Below are positions 1,869 through 12,018 of a DNA stretch of 64,000 nt, piece after piece (position 1 is the first letter of the stretch; each line of letters begins with the position of its first letter). The DNA is taken from NCBI RefSeq assembly GCF_024055725.1, contig NZ_JAMXMX010000006.1, positions 248,001 to 312,000 on the forward strand, written 5' to 3'. Below the pieces are notes generated by a model. It was not told the DNA's origin. It did not search any database and worked only from the letters and a program-made list of their open reading frames with translations. This DNA comes from Actinoallomurus spadix. Its GTDB lineage: Bacteria; Actinomycetota; Actinomycetes; Streptosporangiales; Streptosporangiaceae. Made by a program: the position numbers and the translations under genes.

Positions 1869-2109
1869 GCGACCGTCCTCGCACGCCCATCCCGACCCCC
1901 GTGCGGCGCCGCCCCCCGAAGCCGTACGGCCCCGGTCGCCGGGTCGGGCGCGACGCATCGGTACGTGCTCCCCGGCGGCTCCACCCAGACGTCCCGGCAG
2001 GTACGGACACCGTCCACTGCCGGGGCCGACGGGCCGCCGGACGCGTCACGAGGGAGGCGCGTCCGGCGGCCCTGGCGACCAGGAATCTCAACAGCGAAGG
2101 AGAGAACAT

Positions 2110-2223
2110 ATGGGCAGGCACGGTACGGGCGGCGATGAGCGGGACGGCCACAAGGACAAGGGCAAGCAGGGCACGTTCGTGGACCCTGCCAAGGACGGCA
2201 AGGGCGAAGACAGCGGTAAATGA
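2110..2223 (+). CDS. Putative RiPP precursor peptide (imiditide-like)
   Basis: A 37-aa highly charged peptide with a good ribosome-binding site (AAGGAGAG, about 6 bases before the ATG). Its stop overlaps the ATG of the PIMT-like methyltransferase by four bases. It contains six Asp residues (9, 12, 16, 25, 29, 34), two in Asp-Gly and one in Asp-Ser context, the contexts in which methyl-esterified Asp most readily closes to aspartimide. There is no Cys and no signal peptide. Precursor plus stand-alone PIMT homologue is the reported minimal layout of imiditides (for example NmaA/NmaM of Nonomuraea maritima). The role is inferred from layout, charge and Asp content; which Asp is modified cannot be told from sequence. 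Confidence 0.65.
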   Translation: MGRHGTGGDERDGHKDKGKQGTFVDPAKDGKGEDSGK

Positions 2224-3377
2224 CCGACGCTGAAGCGCTGAACCGGCGGCTCGTCGACGAACTGGCGGCCGCCGGTGCGCTGCCTCAAGAGTGGCGCGCG
2301 CCCTTCCTGGCCGCTCCCCGGCACCTGTTCGTACCCCGTGTCATCTGGGAGGACGCCGGCGGGGGCACGTTGACACCGCGCCGACGGGATGAAAATCCTG
2401 CCGCCTGGCTGTCAGCCGTGTACGCCGACGAGGCGATCGTCACGCAGGTCGATGACGGGGCGACGCCGGACACCGGAACGGGCTCGCGGGTCACCAGCTC
2501 GATCTCCAAACCGTCCATCGTGGCCAGGATGCTCGGCGACCTCGAAGTGGAGCGCGGTATGCGCGTGCTGGAGATCGGCACCGGTACCGGCTGGAACGCG
2601 GCACTCCTCACCCACGCGGTCGGCGAAGGGAACGTCACGACCGTCGAGGTCGACGGCGTTCTCGCCGAGCGGGCTCGTACGGCCCTGGCCGGGGCCGGGG
2701 TGTCGCCTCTGGTGGTCACCGGAGACGGCGCGGGCGGGTACCCGCCGGGCGCGCCGTACGACCGGGTCATCGCGACCGCGTCGGTACGGGTCGTCCCGTA
2801 CCCGTGGGTGACGCAGACCCGGCCGGGCGGGCTGATCCTCTCGCCGTGGGGCACTGCCTATGACAACGGCGCGCTCGTCCGTCTGACGGTCGACGATCGC
2901 GGCGCGGCGTACGGCCCGTTCCTCGACAACACGATCGCGTTCATGTGGGTGCGCGCGCAGCGTGTGCCACGTCCGGCCGTGCCGGCGCACCTGGCGGGCG
3001 TGGCGGAGTCGACCACGACCCTCCACCCGGACGCGGTGGCCTTCGACGACTACGACGCGAGGTTCGCGGTGGGCGTGCGGGTGCCCGACGTGGTGACGAG
3101 GTTCGAGGATGCCGGTGACGGCGGCGACGACTTCACCTTCTGGGCGTTCTCCGGTGCGTCCTGGGCGCGCGTCGACGTCATCGACGGGGCGGTCTCGCAT
3201 CGGGTGCGTCAACACGGTCCGCGTGCGCTGTGGACCGAGATCGAGGCCGCCTATCGTTGGTGGGAGGAGGCCGGGCGTCCGGAGACCGGCCGTTTCGGGC
3301 TCGCCGTCACCGCCGACCGTCAGTACGTCTATCTCGACTCGCCCGGCACCCCCGTGGGTCGTCCGGGGAGTCGCTGA
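2220..3377 (+). CDS. PIMT-like O-methyltransferase, RiPP-associated type
   Basis: A 385-aa SAM-dependent methyltransferase homologous to protein-L-isoaspartate O-methyltransferase. The N-terminal half has the PIMT layout (APRHLFVPRV, SSISKPSIVARML) and the SAM-binding motif I VLEIGTGTGWNAALL at about residues 116-130. Housekeeping PIMTs are about 210-230 aa. This one carries an extra C-terminal region of about 150 residues ending in LWTEIEAAYRWWEEAGRP and FGLAVTADRQYVYLD, which resembles the C-terminal motif of O-methyltransferases linked to lasso peptides, graspetides, FxLD lanthipeptides and imiditides. It starts inside the stop of the small peptide gene, its probable substrate. Expected activity: methyl esterification of an Asp side chain, then aspartimide formation. 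No ATP-grasp, lanthipeptide or lasso cyclase gene lies nearby. Confidence 0.85.
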   Translation: MTDAEALNRRLVDELAAAGALPQEWRAPFLAAPRHLFVPRVIWEDAGGGTLTPRRRDENPAAWLSAVYADEAIVTQVDDGATPDTGTGSRVTSSISKPSIVARMLGDLEVERGMRVLEIGTGTGWNAALLTHAVGEGNVTTVEVDGVLAERARTALAGAGVSPLVVTGDGAGGYPPGAPYDRVIATASVRVVPYPWVTQTRPGGLILSPWGTAYDNGALVRLTVDDRGAAYGPFLDNTIAFMWVRAQRVPRPAVPAHLAGVAESTTTLHPDAVAFDDYDARFAVGVRVPDVVTRFEDAGDGGDDFTFWAFSGASWARVDVIDGAVSHRVRQHGPRALWTEIEAAYRWWEEAGRPETGRFGLAVTADRQYVYLDSPGTPVGRPGSR

Positions 3378-3444: not shown

Positions 3445-4335
3445 ATGGCGTTTCCCCTGCCGTCGTACGAGCGGTCCCGTGTCGTCGTTCCGCCGCCCGG
3501 GGACACTCCCGGCCACTGGGCGGGCGCGCCGAGCGCCTGTGTCGTGGACGGCGAGATCTATCTGGCGTACCGCCTGCGCCGTCCTGTCGGGGAGGGCCGG
3601 GGCTACGCCGTCGTGGTCGCCCGCGCGGTCGGCGGTGAGCGGCCGGAGACGCTGGCCGTGATCGAGAGCGATCGGTTGTCGGCGGAGTCGCTCGAGCGGC
3701 CCGCGCTGGTCGTCACTCCCGAGGGCTCCTGGCGGTTGTACCTCAGCTGCGCGACGCCGGGGACGAAGCACTGGCGCGTCGAGGTGATCGAGGCGGCCGA
3801 CCCCCGCTCGTTCGACCCGTCGACGGCCGAGGTGGTGCTGCCCGGCAGTGACGCCATCGGGGTGAAGGACCCGGTGATCCTCCTGCAGGGCGACAAGTGG
3901 CACCTGTGGGCGTCCTGTCATCCGCTCGCCGACCCGGACGAGGCCGACCGGATGGTGACCGACTACGCGACGAGCGCCGACGGCCTGGACTGGACCTGGC
4001 ACGGCACGGTCCTGACGGGGCGTCCCGGCCGGTGGGACGCGCGCGGCGTACGGATCTCGTCCGTGGTGACGGCGGGCGGCAGGACCGTGGCCTGCTATGA
4101 CGGCCGGGCCAGTGCCACGGAGAACTACGAGGAGCGCACCGGTATCGCGGTCGGTGACGGGTTCGGCATGTTCGAGCAGCAGGGCACCGGCCCGGCCGCC
4201 GTCTCGCCGTACGCCGGTGGCGGCCTGCGCTATGTGACGGCGCTTCCCCTCGGTCACGGGGAATGGCGGCTCTACTACGAGGCGACGCGCGCGGACGGCG
4301 CCCACGAACTGCGCACCGAGCTCATCGCGGCTTGA
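3445..4335 (+). CDS. Glycoside hydrolase family 43-like beta-propeller protein
   Basis: A 296-aa cytoplasmic protein without signal peptide. Repeated blade-like segments (GAPSACVVDGEIYLAYR, SWRLYLSCATPGTKHW, GVKDPVILLQGDKWHLWAS, GEWRLYYEATRADG) match the five-bladed propeller of GH43/GH32-related proteins. The KDP motif, an acidic residue before a DPxIL strand, is where GH43 enzymes place a catalytic Asp. Substrate is unknown and enzymatic activity is unproven. A strong ribosome-binding site (AGGAGGAG) precedes the ATG at 3445. It ends 14 bp inside the convergent sulfotransferase gene. Confidence 0.6.
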   Translation: MAFPLPSYERSRVVVPPPGDTPGHWAGAPSACVVDGEIYLAYRLRRPVGEGRGYAVVVARAVGGERPETLAVIESDRLSAESLERPALVVTPEGSWRLYLSCATPGTKHWRVEVIEAADPRSFDPSTAEVVLPGSDAIGVKDPVILLQGDKWHLWASCHPLADPDEADRMVTDYATSADGLDWTWHGTVLTGRPGRWDARGVRISSVVTAGGRTVACYDGRASATENYEERTGIAVGDGFGMFEQQGTGPAAVSPYAGGGLRYVTALPLGHGEWRLYYEATRADGAHELRTELIAA

Positions 4336-5236
4336 GCCAGTCGCCGTAGTCCTCGCCCGTCACCTCCTCGAGCAGCCGGATGTCGTCGGCGAAGTGGGGG
4401 ATCAGCTGCTGCCGGTCGTCCCAGGTCAGGGGCTGCCGGGGGCGGCGTTCGCGGTGCAGTGCCGCCAGGAGCGGGCCGCGGGCCAGGCGGCGTACGGGCA
4501 GGGGCAGGTCCTGGCCGATCCGGGCGCCGGTACGCAGCAGTTGCTGCAACGCGCGGGTGACCGGGGAGTCGGCCACGTGATTGGTGACGTTCTCGCGGGG
4601 GATCGATCCGATCAGGCCGGTGCGCACGCCGAGGAACGCGCAGATCCGGTCGAGGGTGGCGGCGGGCTCCTCGTGGATCCGCCGGTACCTCACGACCAGC
4701 ACCTGGTCGCGCGGGAACAGCTTGTACAGGTGCTGGAGCTGCTCGCCGTAGCGCCCGAGGTCGACGTACCGCCAGAACGCCGCCCAGCCCGCCGCGATCC
4801 GTTCGGGTTCGGCGGCGCACGCGTCGACGACGTTCCCGATCGGTTCGAGGCCCGCCGACCACAGGTGCGTCCAGTTGGAGTGGGCCCGTTCGACGGGGTC
4901 CCGGAGGACGGCGACCATCTTCACGTCGGGGATGAGGGTGCGGATGCGGAGCTGCGCGTCCCGGTCGTGGAGGTAGAACGGCGTGCTCTCGCCGCGCAGC
5001 GTGCCCTCCGGGGCGGCGGCGAACAGCGCCTCGTAGTCCGTTCGGCGCCAGACGTGCTCCCGGTAGGTCTGCGCGTCACCGGGGCCACCGCGGGTGGGCG
5101 GTGGTCCGTCGGTGAGGAAGAACTTCGGCTCCTTGACGGGGGACAGGAACAGGTCGGGGTGGCGCGCCAGCGCGGCGTGCAGGGCCGTCGTGCCGGCCTT
5201 CGGAGCACCGATCAGCAGAAAGTCCGGAAGGGTCAT
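4322..5236 (-). CDS. Sulfotransferase family protein
   Basis: A 304-aa PAPS-dependent sulfotransferase. The 5'-phosphosulfate-binding loop is near the N-terminus (LIGAPKAGTTALHAAL), with KEPKFF after it and the 3'-phosphate-binding motif VAVLRDPVERAHSNW in the middle. Similar actinobacterial enzymes sulfate carbohydrates or small metabolites. The ATG at 5236 was chosen over an upstream in-frame start at 5272 because GGGAGG precedes it at good spacing and the P-loop follows directly. The tail overlaps the convergent glycosidase-like gene by 14 bp. Substrate cannot be predicted. Confidence 0.85.
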   Translation of the reverse strand: MTLPDFLLIGAPKAGTTALHAALARHPDLFLSPVKEPKFFLTDGPPPTRGGPGDAQTYREHVWRRTDYEALFAAAPEGTLRGESTPFYLHDRDAQLRIRTLIPDVKMVAVLRDPVERAHSNWTHLWSAGLEPIGNVVDACAAEPERIAAGWAAFWRYVDLGRYGEQLQHLYKLFPRDQVLVVRYRRIHEEPAATLDRICAFLGVRTGLIGSIPRENVTNHVADSPVTRALQQLLRTGARIGQDLPLPVRRLARGPLLAALHRERRPRQPLTWDDRQQLIPHFADDIRLLEEVTGEDYGDWLKPR

Positions 5237-5360
5237 CCATCCTCCCTGGTCAGGCGTCCAGCGGTGAGTCAATCATCCCATACCTACCTAAAATGCAGGG
5301 AAATATGCCCTATCAAGGTCGTCGCGGTTCGGGCTGGAATGCGCGATCCTCGGCCGGGTC

Positions 5361-6113
5361 TCAGCCGTAACTGTCGATGCCGAGTTTCACCGCGACGGCC
5401 ACGCCGCAGACCGCGACGATGACGCGCAGTGCCTCACCGGGGAGGCGGCGTACGAGCGCGGGACCGATCCAGCCGCCCACCAGGAAGCCCGCCGCCAGCG
5501 GAACGACGGCGTCCCACCGTACGGGGCCGAAGAGCGCGAACCCGAGGGCGGCGACGCCGTTGGCCAGGCCGGCGATGACGTTCTTCACCGCGTTGACCCG
5601 GACCAGGGGCAGGTCGATCATCGCGGCGAGCACGGCCAGCGTGAGGATGCCGCCGGCGGCGCCGAAGTACCCGGTGTACACCGCGACCGTGAACAGCGCC
5701 AGGCGGAGCGGCCGGCTGCGCTCCCCCGTGGAGCGTTCCGCGAGCCGCTTCGCCTTCGGCTGCAGCAGCAGGATCAGGGACGCCCCCGCGATCAGCCACG
5801 GCGCGATCAGCTCGAACGCCCGCGACGGCGTCACCAGGAGGAGCACCGCGCCGGTGGCGCCGCCGAGCGCCGTCAGCAGGCCCAGCCGCAGGACGCGGGA
5901 ACGCTGGCCGGTGAGCTCCCGCTGCGAACCCGCCGCCGCGCCCACCGCCGTGAACACCAGGGCGACCGTGTTGGTCACGTTCGCGCTGAGGGCGGGCAGC
6001 CCCAGTGCCAGCAGCGCGGGATACGACACGACCGACGCGAGGCTCACCACGGTGCTGACCACCCCGGCGAGGACGCCGACCCCGAACAGGATGGGCAGGT
6101 GTGCCGTGATCAC
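5361..6113 (-). CDS. Sulfite exporter TauE/SafE family permease
   Basis: A 250-aa integral membrane protein with about eight hydrophobic helices and the internally duplicated TauE/SafE layout. Family signatures are seen in each half: ALSANVTNTVALVF near the N-terminus and YTGYFGAAGGILTLAVL in the middle, with VNAVKNVIAGLANG following. The family moves sulfite, sulfonates or other anions out of the cell. It starts at GTG 6113 with no clear ribosome-binding site. A second family member lies at 33505-34338. Substrate unknown. Confidence 0.85.
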   Translation of the reverse strand: MITAHLPILFGVGVLAGVVSTVVSLASVVSYPALLALGLPALSANVTNTVALVFTAVGAAAGSQRELTGQRSRVLRLGLLTALGGATGAVLLLVTPSRAFELIAPWLIAGASLILLLQPKAKRLAERSTGERSRPLRLALFTVAVYTGYFGAAGGILTLAVLAAMIDLPLVRVNAVKNVIAGLANGVAALGFALFGPVRWDAVVPLAAGFLVGGWIGPALVRRLPGEALRVIVAVCGVAVAVKLGIDSYG

Positions 6114-6153
6114 CCAATATCACTAACACACCGGGTCGCCAGGGGGTGGGGAC

Positions 6154-6534
6154 TCAGCTCGCGACCTTGGCGGAGACGATGTCCGGGGCGAGGGTGGCGA
6201 CGACGCCGATGATCTGGCCGACCAGCTCGGCCGGGACGCCCGCGGCGGTGAGCGCGTCCGTCAGGTGCCCGGCGACCAGGTCGAAGTGCTCCTGCTCGAT
6301 GCCGCGCCCCTGGTGGACCGCCCGCATGGGCGCGTCCGAGTAGACCTGCGGCCCGCCCAGTGCCGCGCCGAAGAACTCCACCTGACGGCCCTTGAGCCGG
6401 GGCATGGAGACGCCGGCGAAGAAGCTCTCCAGCTTCGGATCCGCCAGCACCCGTACGTAGAAGTCGTCGACCACGGCGACGAGCGCCTCCTCGCCGCCGA
6501 TCCTGTCGTAGATGCTCTGCTCCGTGGTGCTCAT
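6154..6534 (-). CDS. Group I truncated haemoglobin
   Basis: A 126-aa haem protein of the 2-on-2 fold. The start [22 protein letters not shown], the B-helix Tyr in [11 protein letters not shown], and the proximal His in [18 protein letters not shown] fit group I (trHbN) proteins. Members typically oxidise nitric oxide to nitrate or bind O2. Length is standard. The ATG at 6534 fits the family start; longer upstream reading is not family-like. It lies 40 bp before the TauE-like gene on the same strand in the opposite order of transcription (hb is downstream of nothing obvious), and may be monocistronic. Confidence 0.9.
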
Positions 6535-8284: not shown

Positions 8285-8536
8285 CCATACCCCTCCGTTA
8301 TGTGCGGTCTCGACCAACCTCTTCCCCCGGTAGGCGATGTCAATCACCGGACCGGTGAGAGCGCCGTTCGCCCGTTGTCAGGGCGCTGTTCGGCCCCGCC
8401 CGAGAACACCGTCCGGCCGTCGGCGCCGGTGCGGCGGGTCGTTCGGGGAACCCGCCGAGGCCAGTAGCGTTGGTCACCTCAGACGTATCCGAACACGCCC
8501 GCCGAGGGCATACTCCGAAACGAGGAGGCGGTCTTC

Positions 8537-9055
8537 ATGGCCGGAGAACTCATCGCGACCCTGAACACCACCCTGGGGCCCATCGTCATCCGCCTGTTCC
8601 CCGACAAGGCACCCAAGACGGTCGAGAACTTCGTCGGTCTCGCCGAGGGGACGATCGAGTGGACGCACCCCGCGACCGGTCAGCGGTCGACGACTCCGCT
8701 CTACAACGGCACGATCTTCCACCGGGTCATCGACGGCTTCATGATCCAGGGCGGCGACCCCCTCGGCCAGGGCTTCGGCGGCCCGGGCTACGAGTTCGAG
8801 GACGAGATCGACCGTGACCTGCGGTTCGACCGGCCGTACCTCCTGGCGATGGCCAACGCCGGACCCGGCACGAACGGCTCGCAGTTCTTCGTGACGGTCG
8901 TCCCCACGCCGCACCTCAACGGCCGCCACACGATCTTCGGTGAGGTCGTGCAGGGCAGCGAGGTCGTCGACGCGATCGCCAAGACGGAGACCGGCCGGAA
9001 CGACCGCCCGGTCAAGGACATCGTCGTGGAATCGGTGACCATCGAGCGTCGTTAG
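8537..9055 (+). CDS. ppiA: Cyclophilin-type peptidyl-prolyl cis-trans isomerase
   Basis: A 172-aa cytoplasmic cyclophilin. Family residues are visible: FHRVIDGFMIQGGDP (catalytic Arg and Phe), GTNGSQFFVT and NGRHTIFGEVV. It catalyses prolyl isomerisation during protein folding. GAGGAGG stands 8 bases before the ATG. The position, upstream of the rhomboid and crgA genes, is the conserved origin-proximal arrangement in Actinobacteria. No signal peptide, so the intracellular PpiA type rather than the lipoprotein PpiB type. Confidence 0.95.
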   Translation: MAGELIATLNTTLGPIVIRLFPDKAPKTVENFVGLAEGTIEWTHPATGQRSTTPLYNGTIFHRVIDGFMIQGGDPLGQGFGGPGYEFEDEIDRDLRFDRPYLLAMANAGPGTNGSQFFVTVVPTPHLNGRHTIFGEVVQGSEVVDAIAKTETGRNDRPVKDIVVESVTIERR

Positions 9056-9087
9056 ACGGATAACCGGCCACAGACGAGAAGGCGACG

Positions 9088-9969
9088 ATGAGCACCGATC
9101 CGGCGCAGGCCCCGGCTCCCGAGGTACCCATGTGCTACCGGCATCCGGGCCGGGAGACCTACGTCCGGTGCACGCGGTGCGACCGGCCGATCTGCCCGGA
9201 CTGCATGCGCGTGGCCGCGGTCGGGCACCAGTGCCCCGAGTGCGTCCGCGACGGCAACAGCACGGTGCGTGAGCCGCGCACGGTGCTGGGCGGCCGGGTG
9301 CGGAACCGCCCGGCGGTCACGCTGACGCTCATCAGTCTGAACGTCCTCGCCTACCTGGCGGAGCTGGTCTCGCCGACGTTCGTCGGCCGGTTCGAGATGC
9401 TGGGCGGCATGCCCGCGCGCGGCCGGCTCCCCGGGATCGGCGTCGCCGACGGCGAGTGGTACCGCCTGATCACCGGGGCGTTCCTGCACGTGCCGATGGA
9501 CCAGGGCGGGCTCGGCATCACCCACATCCTGTTCAACATGTGGGCGCTGTGGGTGCTCGGCCCGCAGCTGGAGCACGTGCTGGGCCGCGCGCGGTTCACG
9601 GTGCTGTACGTCCTGTCGGCGATCGGCGGGAACGTCCTGCTCTACCTGGTGGCCCCGCTGCAGCCCGCCGTGGGCGCCTCCGGCGCCATCTTCGGGCTGT
9701 TCGCGGCGTTCTTCGTCGTCGGCCGCCGGCTCGGCGTCGACACGCGCGGCATCGTCTTCCTCATCGTGATCAACCTGGTGTTCACGTTCACCTTCTCCGG
9801 GATCTCCTGGGAAGGGCATGTGGGCGGGCTGGTCACCGGTGCGGTGCTCGCGGTCGCGTTCGCGTACGCCCCGCGCCGGCGGCAGAAGGCCGTCCAGGTC
9901 GCCGCGTCGGCGGTCGTCGCCGGTCTGCTCGTCGTCCTCACCGCCGTGGCCACGGCGCTCGCGTCCTGA
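9088..9969 (+). CDS. Rhomboid family intramembrane serine protease with N-terminal zinc finger
   Basis: A 293-aa protein. Residues about 15-55 form a B-box-like zinc-binding region with Cys/His pairs (CYRH, CTRC, CPDC, CPEC). The rest is a six-helix rhomboid core with the catalytic serine in GASGAIFGLF (about Ser198) and the histidine in WEGHVGGL (about His244); HILFNMWALW supplies the oxyanion-helix motif. It cleaves transmembrane substrates in the plane of the membrane; native substrates in actinomycetes are mostly unknown. It follows ppiA by 32 bp, probably co-transcribed. Confidence 0.93.
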   Translation: MSTDPAQAPAPEVPMCYRHPGRETYVRCTRCDRPICPDCMRVAAVGHQCPECVRDGNSTVREPRTVLGGRVRNRPAVTLTLISLNVLAYLAELVSPTFVGRFEMLGGMPARGRLPGIGVADGEWYRLITGAFLHVPMDQGGLGITHILFNMWALWVLGPQLEHVLGRARFTVLYVLSAIGGNVLLYLVAPLQPAVGASGAIFGLFAAFFVVGRRLGVDTRGIVFLIVINLVFTFTFSGISWEGHVGGLVTGAVLAVAFAYAPRRRQKAVQVAASAVVAGLLVVLTAVATALAS

Positions 9970-10010
9970 CGCCCGCGCTCGTCGTTCGCGCCGCGTGGCG
10001 ACCGCGCCGG

Positions 10011-10036
10011 CGTTTCATGGCGGCGTTTCATGGCGG
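10011..10036 (+). repeat. Two-copy 13-bp tandem repeat
   Basis: The unit CGTTTCATGGCGG occurs twice in direct succession (10011-10023 and 10024-10036) in the spacer after the rhomboid gene. It could be replication slippage; no function is evident. Confidence 0.6.
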
Positions 10037-10175
10037 CGTGCTCGCGCCGCTCGTGCGGGCGCGGCAACCGCTCGGCGGTTCCGCGGCCGTACGACCGGCT
10101 CAGCCGGTCACGCGCGGGCGGACATGGACGCTCCGCCCGCGCCGCACGGCACGAGAGAAGGCTGGGGACGATCCC

Positions 10176-10214
10176 TGTGGATAACCCCCAGTGCGATCCA
10201 CAGGCTGTGGACAA
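10176..10214. promoter_or_regulatory. DnaA-box pair between the rhomboid gene and crgA
   Basis: TGTGGATAA at 10176-10184 is the reverse complement of the consensus TTATCCACA, and TGTGGACAA at 10206-10214 is the reverse complement of the actinobacterial TTGTCCACA. Between them GATCCACA (10195-10202) is a degenerate box on the other strand. They sit 14-52 bp past the 3' end of crgA in non-coding DNA. Confidence 0.6.
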
Positions 10215-10227
10215 CCGTGTGGGGAAG

Positions 10228-10485
10228 TCAACGCCAGCGCGTCGACAGCACCACGCCGATCACGATCACGCCGAACCCGATGAGCAGGTTCCAGTTGCTC
10301 AGCGAGGTGATCAGCGGCACCGACGCGCCGACGCTCGCCGTGATGTAGTAGACGGCGATCCAGGCCAGGCCGAGCAGCCAGCAACCCACCATCGTCGGCA
10401 CCAGCCACCTGGGGCTGACCGAGACCTTCTGCGAGCGCTGCGGCGGAGTGTAGACGGCCTTCTTGCGTACCTTCGACTTGGGCAC
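10228..10485 (-). CDS. crgA: Cell division protein CrgA
   Basis: An 85-aa protein with a basic N-terminus (PKSKVRKKAVYTPP) and two transmembrane segments separated by a short loop, the CrgA/UPF0233 layout. CrgA recruits or holds FtsZ-ring and peptidoglycan synthesis proteins at division sites and tunes septation in sporulating actinomycetes. The start is GTG at 10485, preceded by GAGGAGAG at good spacing. It is transcribed divergently from the DUF881-sortase operon, as in related genomes. Confidence 0.93.
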   Translation of the reverse strand: MPKSKVRKKAVYTPPQRSQKVSVSPRWLVPTMVGCWLLGLAWIAVYYITASVGASVPLITSLSNWNLLIGFGVIVIGVVLSTRWR

Positions 10486-10604
10486 GGGGTCTCTCCTCGG
10501 GCGGAACGCGGCCGCACGCCGGGTCCGCGCATGGGTCAATTTGTCAGTTAGCGTAGTCGCTGGTGAGCAGCGTACGACCTTATTGGGGGCGGTGGGGTGT
10601 CGCG

Positions 10605-11384
10605 ATGCGGGCAAAAACCGGCAACGGCGGGCTGAGCGGCGCCGCCCGGCCGTGGCGATACGCCATCCCGGCCCTGACGATCTTCGCGGGCACCCTGTTC
10701 GCGGCCAGCGCGAGCACTGCGCACGGAACGGACCTGCGCGGCGGCGGCCGTACGAAGGTCACCGAGCTCATCGCCCAGGAACAGCGGCAGTACCAGGGCT
10801 CGCAGACGCGCTACCGCCACCTCCGGCGGCAGATCGAAGGTCTCGTACGGGCGGCGGCGCGGCGCGACGCCCGGGTCAAGGCCGCTCAGGAGACCGCCGA
10901 CCGCCTCGCGGCCCGAGCGGGGCTCGCCCCGGTCACCGGACACGGGCTGCGCGTCACCCTCGACGACGCGCCCACCGGGCAGCGGATCGCCGGCGACCCC
11001 GGCCCCGACGACCTCGTCGTTCACCAGCAGGACGTCCAGGCCGTCGTCAACGCGCTGTGGACCGGCGGTGCAACGGGCGTGCAAATCATGGACCAACGCT
11101 TGATCTCCACCAGCGCCGTACGTTGCGTCGGCAATACGCTCATCCTCCAGGGCGTCGTCTACTCGCCGCCGTTCCGGATCACCGCGACCGGGGACCCGGG
11201 CCGGCTGCGAGCGGCGCTGGACGCCTCGCCGGCCATACAGGTCTACCGGCAGTACGTCGCCGAATACGGACTCGGGTACACCGTGAGAACGCTCAAGAAG
11301 ACGACACTGCCCGCCTACGCGGGCAACGCACAGCCCAAGTACGCCACCGCGCTGGAGCCCGACGGTGCGAACCCTCATTCGTAG
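10605..11384 (+). CDS. DUF881 family protein
   Basis: A 259-aa membrane-anchored protein: a short cytoplasmic N-terminus, one hydrophobic helix (about residues 15-37), a predicted coiled coil (Arg/Gln/Glu-rich, residues 55-110), then the DUF881 domain with GLRVTLDDAP, DDLVVHQQDVQAVVNALW and a VRCVGNTLILQGVVYSPPF strand. DUF881 proteins sit beside crgA and the class E sortase in Actinobacteria and are thought to act in division or envelope assembly; no biochemical role is established. It overlaps the sortase gene by 20 bp. Confidence 0.88.
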   Translation: MRAKTGNGGLSGAARPWRYAIPALTIFAGTLFAASASTAHGTDLRGGGRTKVTELIAQEQRQYQGSQTRYRHLRRQIEGLVRAAARRDARVKAAQETADRLAARAGLAPVTGHGLRVTLDDAPTGQRIAGDPGPDDLVVHQQDVQAVVNALWTGGATGVQIMDQRLISTSAVRCVGNTLILQGVVYSPPFRITATGDPGRLRAALDASPAIQVYRQYVAEYGLGYTVRTLKKTTLPAYAGNAQPKYATALEPDGANPHS

Positions 11385-12018
11385 CCTCGGCGAGTTGTGC
11401 ATCACCGCCGGGGCCGTCCTGCTGCTGTTCGTCGCGTACGAACTGTGGGGCACCGGCGCGTACACCCAGGCCGAGCAGCGCAGGCTCGGCGGCGAGCTCA
11501 CCCACGACTGGGCCGCACCGCCTCCCCGCAAGGCGCCGGGCGCCGTGACGGCCGAGCGCGTCCGGCTCGGCCACGGCCTCGCGCTGATCCGGATCCCCCG
11601 GCTGGGCAAGCGGTTCCACTACGTGATCATCGAGGGTGTGTCCGTCGCGGACCTGCGCAAGGGGCCCGGACACTACCCCGGCACCGCGATGCCGGGCGAG
11701 ATCGGCAACTTCGTCGTCTCCGGGCACCGGACGACGTACCAGGCGCCCTTCAACCGCCTCGACGAGCTGCACACCGGCGACAAGATCCTCATCGACACCC
11801 GATCCCGGCAGTACACCTACAAGGTCACCGGCAAGAAGGTCGTGTCCCCCGGTGACGTCGGCGTCGTCGCCCCGGTGCCGGAACACCCGACCAAGGACCC
11901 GACCGACCGGCTGATCACGCTCACCACCTGCCACCCCAAGTACTCCGCCGCCGAGCGGCTCATCGTGTTCGGGCGGATGGTCGGCTCGATCCCCCGGGTG
12001 AACGGAGCGTCCTCCTGA
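11365..12018 (+). CDS. Class E sortase
   Basis: A 217-aa membrane-anchored transpeptidase. One N-terminal transmembrane helix (about residues 8-26) precedes the sortase barrel. The catalytic His is in VVSGHRTTY (about 121), the Cys in LTTCHPKY (about 189), and the Arg in ERLIVFGR. Class E sortases of high-GC actinobacteria attach LAXTG-type proteins to peptidoglycan. The start is GTG at 11365 inside the DUF881 gene; the stop overlaps the ATG of the next small gene by one base, so the three form an operon. No sortase substrate gene is seen in the window. Confidence 0.92.
   Translation: MRTLIRSLGELCITAGAVLLLFVAYELWGTGAYTQAEQRRLGGELTHDWAAPPPRKAPGAVTAERVRLGHGLALIRIPRLGKRFHYVIIEGVSVADLRKGPGHYPGTAMPGEIGNFVVSGHRTTYQAPFNRLDELHTGDKILIDTRSRQYTYKVTGKKVVSPGDVGVVAPVPEHPTKDPTDRLITLTTCHPKYSAAERLIVFGRMVGSIPRVNGASS

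What the first reader, a model, noticed from the sequence alone, without database searches (positions are those of the whole stretch)
2110..3377. Minimal two-gene imiditide-like RiPP locus: 37-aa Asp-rich peptide plus RiPP-type PIMT
Seen: a 37-codon gene with a good ribosome-binding site overlaps by four bases a 385-aa PIMT-like methyltransferase carrying the extra C-terminal region (LWTEIEAAYRWWEEAGRP) linked to RiPP O-methyltransferases. The peptide has six Asp, two in Asp-Gly and one in Asp-Ser context, and no Cys. Known: imiditides use a stand-alone PIMT homologue to methylate an Asp on a linear charged precursor, giving aspartimide. Inferred: this is a member, with an unassigned modified Asp and unknown function. 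The precursor sequence is short and highly charged; whether it belongs to a described subgroup is open.
Basis: partly seen in the sequence, partly recalled or inferred. Interest (0 to 1): 0.85.

Follow-up and report, generated by a model that had tools for sequence, protein, structure and literature searches.

The report
Two-gene imiditide locus with Asp-Pro
A soil actinomycete carries a two-gene cassette, a 37-residue peptide and the enzyme that should methylate one of its aspartates, which belongs to a known natural-product class (imiditides, also called type I pamtides), though in its small subgroup one of the two strictly conserved aspartates sits before a proline and so cannot form the usual ring.

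Summary
A 37-codon gene (2110-2223) overlaps a 385-residue PIMT-type methyltransferase gene (2220-3377) by ATGA. Three other genomes, probably Actinomadura, hold full-length orthologues (70-73% identity) with the same peptide gene and overlap. DNA similarity covers the pair and little more. The enzyme has the C-terminal extension, WxxxGxP motif and an acidic loop as described for RiPP aspartyl methyltransferases. This is a type I pamtide/imiditide, a known class with over 1,400 reported members.

New detail concerns the acceptor. Only two Asp are invariant in the four clade peptides: D12 (RD[GS]) and D25 (GTFVDP). D25 precedes proline and cannot cyclise. In neighbouring clades, 24 of 24 distinct called peptides have an Asp at residues 9-13 (8 of 33 rows had no called peptide and were dropped), while a cyclisable middle Asp is missing in 6. 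I predict D12, unproven; in published NmaA the modified Asp appears to lie later. The bold alternative is a stable methyl ester on D25. Broken copies in two species of the genus and one further species, and a possible empty site in another, suggest the locus is dispensable. Its biological role is unknown.

The parts
2097..2104 (+). ribosome-binding site AAGGAGAG of the peptide gene
   Evidence: read from sequence
2110..2223 (+). precursor peptide gene, 37 aa; stop overlaps next start (ATGA)
   Evidence: conserved in three other full-length orthologous loci
2143..2145 (+). codon of Asp12 (RDGHK), invariant in the clade; predicted acceptor
   Evidence: acceptor role is inference
2170..2187 (+). 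GTFVDP motif, invariant in the clade; Asp25 is followed by Pro
2220..3377 (+). PIMT-type RiPP aspartyl O-methyltransferase (PAMT), 385 aa
   Evidence: PF01135 E 3e-27; TIGR04188 348.1 bits, below its cut-off of 380
2568..2594 (+). SAM-binding motif LEIGTGTGW of the methyltransferase
   Evidence: alignments; motif name recalled
3105..3131 (+). acidic loop EDAGDGGDD, aligned with the DEDGD stretch of locus L121
   Evidence: DEDGD loop of NmaM described in PMC13001092
3261..3281 (+). WxxxGxP motif (WEEAGRP) of the C-terminal domain
   Evidence: motif described in PMC13001092
1105..1590 (+). upstream HATPase_c_2 protein (possible regulator; not part of the conserved pair)
   Evidence: no match beside the three other full-length orthologues at E 1e-6

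Best explanation
This is a type I pamtide (imiditide) locus. The 37-aa precursor and the methyltransferase are translated together through the ATGA overlap. The enzyme recognises the linear, highly charged peptide, probably by pairing its acidic C-terminal loop with Lys of the peptide, and transfers a methyl group from SAM to one Asp. Most likely this is Asp12; the amide of Gly13 (Ser13 in one orthologue) then expels methanol and gives an aspartimide (-18 Da), which opens to isoAsp. Shown: the anatomy, the conservation, the family and the clade. Inferred: the reaction (from characterised relatives), the acceptor, the recognition. Biological role: not known for the class; the upstream XRE and HATPase genes suggest regulated expression, which is only an association.
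For: Coupled two-gene unit with the ATGA overlap in the window and in 3 of 3 other full-length orthologues. PIMT domain at residues 92-212 plus about 170 further residues, WEEAGRP motif and acidic loop. Quick tree of 102 relatives: the window clade of four (support 100) groups with PIMTs preceded by MG[KR]H...DG[HQK][KW] peptides; the five enzymes with ATP-grasp-like ORFs upstream (L020, L023, L027, L037, L129; recognised by eye) fall in one other clade of nine. Characterised type I systems give methylated and aspartimidylated products on linear precursors (SpaA, PMC10787088 section 2.5; NmaA, PMC13001092). For Asp12: invariant in 4 of 4 clade peptides, kept in the broken precursor of G066 (RDGSK), and matched by an Asp at residues 9-13 in 24 of 24 distinct called peptides of the neighbouring clades, as Asp-Gly in 19; in L014 the only other Asp is D6.
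Against: No mass evidence. NmaA is still aspartimidylated when its first 20 residues are removed, so its acceptor appears to lie later; by N-terminal spacing the matching residue here would be D25 (my reading). The acceptor of SpaA is not named in the text I read. The 24 of 24 rests on 25 of 33 rows: 8 rows without a called peptide were dropped and one row was a duplicate; residues are counted from an anchor that my script set, and matching position 11 there to D12 here needs a one-residue gap. The precursor is Pro-poor with net charge 0, whereas the review stresses positive charge. One of the four clade enzymes (L057) lacks the Gly of WxxxGxP. The tree has SH-aLRT support only; the branch joining the window clade to its neighbours has 91 and is drawn open, and type I-like peptides occur in both halves of the tree, with the ATP-grasp-like clade between them. 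TIGR04188, a graspetide-type model, is the best named match, though below cut-off.
Confidence: 0.65

Rival explanations
1. Same class, but the acceptor is D25 in GTFVDP. With proline next, the ester cannot cyclise, so the product is a stable aspartyl methyl ester (+14 Da) and the clade makes an ester peptide, not an imide.
For: D25 and its motif are invariant in 4 of 4; by N-terminal spacing D25 coincides with the TPD(D)GG Asp of neighbouring peptides, the region where NmaA's acceptor appears to lie. Asp-Pro in this region also occurs in L072 and L075 (D25) and L145 (D22).
Against: A second alignment is possible: peptides of a large-genome genus (L121, L124, L131, L132, L136, L138, L139) carry F or L, then 0-2 residues, then DP.[KR], before a separate later Asp, so GTFVDP may be that motif. 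In L119, L122 and L123 the corresponding dipeptide looks like Glu-Pro.
Confidence: 0.12
2. Same class, acceptor is one of the Asp after GTFVDP (D29-Gly or D34-Ser), in the tail, as in NmaA-like peptides.
For: NmaA's acceptor appears to lie beyond residue 20; D29-G and D34-S are chemically suited.
Against: The tails of the four clade peptides differ in length and sequence and I could align no shared Asp after D25.
Confidence: 0.1
3. A graspetide, lasso or lanthipeptide tailoring PIMT that has lost or lies apart from its main modification enzyme.
For: Best NCBIfam model is TIGR04188, ATP-grasp peptide maturase system methyltransferase (348.1 bits, cut-off 380).
Against: Below cut-off. Pfam scans of six close neighbours (XRE, HATPase, 93-aa ORF and aldo-keto reductase upstream; 296-aa ORF and sulfotransferase downstream) show no known primary RiPP enzyme. 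The five enzymes with ATP-grasp-like ORFs upstream fall in another clade. Genes farther away were not scanned.
Confidence: 0.03
4. A housekeeping isoaspartate-repair enzyme with a chance ORF upstream.
For: PIMT domain.
Against: Extra C-terminal region; coupled peptide in four genomes with dN below dS in all six pairs; 0 of 36 control genes with such an ORF; the genome has 12 PF01135 matches, two of them scoring higher than this one; housekeeping model TIGR00080 scores 85.4 against a cut-off of 159.05.
Confidence: 0.03

Closest known systems
Type I pamtides / imiditides (SpaA-SpaM of Streptomyces sparsogenes; NmaA-NmaM of Nonomuraea maritima)
   Same: two genes, short charged Cys-free precursor, PIMT homologue with C-terminal domain, WxxxGxP and acidic loop, no other maturation enzyme among the neighbours scanned
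   Different: Pro-poor precursor with net charge 0; clade-specific GTFVDP with a non-cyclisable Asp; the invariant cyclisable Asp is N-terminal (D12)
Neighbouring type I-like clades with MG[KR]H...DG[HQK][KW] peptides
   Same: N-terminal MG[KR]H, an N-terminal Asp-Gly (DGHK in several), gene order, PIMT about 50% identical
   Different: Pro-rich middle and, in many, a GG[KR]HERD tail are absent here
Graspetide-associated methyltransferases (TIGR04188)
   Same: best-scoring named family model
   Different: score below cut-off; no ATP-grasp gene among the six close neighbours scanned; different clade in the quick tree
Type II pamtides / cysimiditides
   Same: PIMT plus small precursor
   Different: no Cys, so no CxxCxGxG motifs

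Membership tests
type I pamtides / imiditides | two-gene locus of precursor and PIMT homologue without a primary RiPP enzyme | tested here: met
   six close neighbours scanned
type I pamtides / imiditides | PIMT homologue with C-terminal extension over 100 aa and WxxxGxP | tested here: met
   one of the four clade enzymes (L057) lacks the motif's Gly
type I pamtides / imiditides | precursor of about 45 aa rich in Gly, Pro and Asp, no Cys motif | tested here: inconclusive
   37 aa, Gly 27%, Asp 16%, but Pro 3%; published means 17.3 (Gly), 16.8 (Pro), 10.2% (Asp)
[quoted passage not shown]
   D12 and D25 in 4 of 4 clade peptides
type I pamtides / imiditides | enzyme falls among type I enzymes in a tree | tested here: inconclusive
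   its nearest clades carry type I-like peptides and the S. sparsogenes locus L045 is in the same 53-row half (support 84), but type I-like peptides occur in both halves and the tree is a quick one
type I pamtides / imiditides | aspartimide (or isoAsp) formed on the linear precursor | not testable with these tools
   needs co-expression and mass spectrometry
type II pamtides / cysimiditides | CxxCxGxG twice in the precursor | tested here: not met
   no Cys in the peptide
graspetide system methyltransferase (TIGR04188) | score over curated cut-off of 380 bits | tested here: not met
   348.1 bits
FxLD lanthipeptide methyltransferase (TIGR04364) | score over curated cut-off of 320 bits | tested here: not met
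   123.4 bits, best stretch residues 59-209
housekeeping PIMT (TIGR00080) | score over curated cut-off of 159.05 bits | tested here: not met
   85.4 bits

The most novel reading that the evidence does not exclude
In this clade the enzyme methylates Asp25 in the invariant Asp-Pro and the reaction ends there: a pamtide whose finished modification is a stable aspartyl methyl ester, because proline removes the amide that would form the imide. That would separate methylation from imide formation in this enzyme family.
Probability: 0.12. Interest if true: 0.6.

Novelty: new member of a known kind. Interest (0 to 1): 0.35.

Why it matters
For imiditides the role of the aspartimide is called unclear in the 2026 review, which describes heterologous expression of two type I systems (PMC13001092). 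This clade offers a clean test of which Asp is the acceptor: its two invariant Asp differ in whether they can cyclise, so one mass measurement could tell D12 (imide, -18 Da) from D25 (ester, +14 Da only). Broken copies in related species give natural comparisons for function.

Tried and rejected
The JACS 2023 imiditide paper is not held, so the NmaA sequence was not seen; L121 (DEDGD stretch, an Asp-His in the peptide) is only a possible relative of NmaM, its organism being unnamed.

Regulators: HTH_31 proteins are 15 of 73 upstream and 5 of 68 downstream neighbour proteins around 34 PIMT loci (Fisher p 0.03). The window's genome has at least 112 matches in 8.02 Mb; only 150 of 528 first-look candidates were scored, so 112 is a lower bound. 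The table counts proteins, not loci; neighbour ORFs were called by my own script; I passed 73 of 111 upstream and 67 of 110 downstream ORFs called, plus one downstream ORF set by hand (L080:7445-8332); and not all 34 loci have a called peptide. A hint only.

Literature: the listings (imiditide; aspartimide with RiPP and PIMT; aspartimide with Asp-Pro or n+1; pamtide; Actinoallomurus with RiPP; aspartimide with proline and methyl ester) showed me no paper on an Asp-Pro subgroup. Supplements could not be read; Figure S11a of PMC10787088, which its text says shows type I conservation patterns, was not seen, so the subgroup may already be there.

Errors of mine, corrected: searches failed on a wrong coordinate. 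In some searches the peptide was given one base out of frame (2111-2221); repeated in frame (no family at E up to 1). One search's codon counts for the window are out of frame and are replaced; its blastn part stands.

Full report
Observation. The window lies on contig 66 of an 8.02 Mb actinomycete genome. The genus is probably Actinoallomurus: genome G001 of the same genus has a contig of 455,626 bases, the length of the A. soli contig found, and the matches on both agree. The peptide gene 2110-2223 and the methyltransferase gene 2220-3377 are as described, with an AAGGAGAG ribosome-binding site and an ATGA overlap.

Family. The enzyme matches PF01135 over residues 92-212 (E 3e-27). Its best NCBIfam model is TIGR04188, the methyltransferase of ATP-grasp peptide systems, at 348.1 bits, below the cut-off of 380. 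The ten PDB sequences matched at E up to 1e-5 are isoaspartyl methyltransferases or a hypothetical one; among them is 1dl5, which PMC10787088 calls, to its authors' knowledge, the only solved enzyme of this clade (passage). Pfam and NCBIfam give no family for the peptide at E up to 1.

Orthologues. In 341 genomes of the family, 35 (the window's own included) have a match at E up to 1e-95; besides the window only three are full-length at 70-73% identity: G271, G267, G316 (five first-look candidates scored per genome). The TGA that one search reports inside the G271 match is not in the tblastn match of residues 1-379 and is most likely the gene's own stop. In a sample of 394 genomes of the class, 10 (own included) match at E up to 1e-90, all in the same family and, apart from the window's own, at 48-54% identity (four candidates scored per genome). 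The three loci each carry a small gene with the same overlap: MGMHGTGGNTRDGSKPKDQHGTFVDPTKQPSKGKRAKDDEGKGGKGK (G271), MGRHGSDGDKRDGSRDRDKQGTFVDPFKGDKGKGGKDKSKDDKGK (G316), MGKHGTGGDERDSSKGKDKQGTFVDPAKGGKDKGNKGK (G267). DNA similarity runs over window 2110-3355 (G271), 2091-3355 (G267) and 2110-3342 (G316): the pair is the conserved unit. Relatives of the window's XRE, HATPase, 93-aa, 296-aa and sulfotransferase genes were not found beside them within the 4-5 kb fetched (E 1e-6).

Wider set. Of 102 distinct PIMT relatives gathered, 67 have a small G/P/D/K/H/E-rich ORF ending near their start and 35 do not. The 35 include five with ATP-grasp-like upstream ORFs (by eye), two with Cys-containing peptides (L026, L029), and others where there may be none or my rule may have failed. 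The control is 0 of 36 genes. In a quick tree of the 102 (SH-aLRT support only) the window clade of four has support 100; it joins enzymes with MG[KR]H...DG peptides at 91, drawn open. Type I-like peptides occur in both halves of the tree, so the tree alone does not define the class.

Which Asp. In the four clade peptides D12 and D25 are the only Asp kept in all over the first 28 residues, and I could align none in the tails. D25 is followed by Pro. [quoted passage not shown] that proline has no such N-H is textbook knowledge, from no call. The neighbouring clades hold 33 rows of the tree; 25 have a called peptide, 24 distinct. Of these 24, an Asp lies at residues 9-13 in 24 (at 11 in 23) and is Asp-Gly in 19; at residues 19-28 an Asp not followed by Pro is present in 18 and missing in 6 (L145, L072, L075, L147, L079, L014). 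L147 may not be a real precursor. I therefore favour D12. Against this, NmaA keeps aspartimidylation when its first 20 residues are removed (PMC13001092), which points to a later acceptor there. Peptides of a large-genome genus of the family (54 genomes searched) carry F or L, 0-2 residues, then DP.[KR] before a later Asp, so GTFVDP may be a recognition motif. Alignment of such short peptides is not secure.

Selection. Over the first 28 codons dN is below dS in all six pairs (0.11-0.29 against 0.35-1.43); one pair, G271-G316, is nearly equal (0.29 and 0.35), so constraint on the peptide is moderate.

Decay. In G007, of the same genus, the site keeps the XRE gene, the first codons of the peptide gene and the methyltransferase from about codon 181, with the middle gone. 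In A. soli DNA similarity to the enzyme gene starts only at about codon 243 (protein match from residue 222). The junctions differ, so these look like separate losses. In G006 the upstream flank and the 296-aa gene lie about 120 bases apart without the locus, which could be an original empty site or a deletion. The locus looks dispensable.

Known or new. Of PMC10787088 I saw the abstract, sections 2.3 and 2.5 and passages; of PMC13001092 the abstract, the imiditide section and passages. They describe the class, its two-gene form, charge-based recognition and more than 1,400 type I members. Of PMC11048544, PMC12262139 and PMC10745333 I saw passages. The window is a new member. The GTFVDP clade is at most a subgroup; I cannot say whether the published supporting figures already show it.

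Noticed in passing
L083 about 5725-6350 (G007), L098 about 4448-5133 (G066), L084 about 5289-5819 (A. soli): Three broken copies of the orthologous pair, with different junctions; two run the start of the peptide gene into the second half of the enzyme gene.
   Followed up: partly
L142 7050-7173 (G006): Possible empty site: the upstream flank and the 296-aa gene are only about 120 bases apart, without the locus and the genes between.
   Followed up: partly
G000:C44 (L005/L035/L081) and G000:C14 (L004/L082): Two further type I-like pairs in the same genome, with peptides MGKHSRPDPPPHPNDQPTPDGKGTPPPPPKPKK and MGRHSGKDSDDKAGGDGNKPQGGRRGTGGGNSGNTGDGNNPAK; the C44 copy also has an HATPase gene upstream, 45% identical to the window's.
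   Followed up: partly
34 PIMT loci, neighbour genes: XRE-type HTH_31 regulators are frequent near these PIMT genes: 15 of 73 upstream and 5 of 68 downstream neighbour proteins scanned.
   Followed up: partly
L049 1-390 and L050 1-390: Two near-identical C-terminal PIMT pieces at contig ends in Actinomadura sp. NBRC 104425, which also has the full copy L039; perhaps repeated copies broken by assembly.
   Followed up: partly
window 3445-4332: A 296-aa gene without a Pfam match at E 0.01, 69-95% identical in four other genomes of the genus.
   Followed up: no
L121, L124, L131, L132, L136, L138, L139 (upstream of PIMT): Peptides with F or L, 0-2 residues, DP.[KR], then a separate later Asp (in TPD, SAD, GD or ND context) and a [KGS]G[KQ]H tail.
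   Followed up: partly
window about 8500-12000: Peptidyl-prolyl isomerase-, rhomboid- and sortase-like ORFs, resembling an actinomycete core region; names recalled from the translations, not searched.
   Followed up: no
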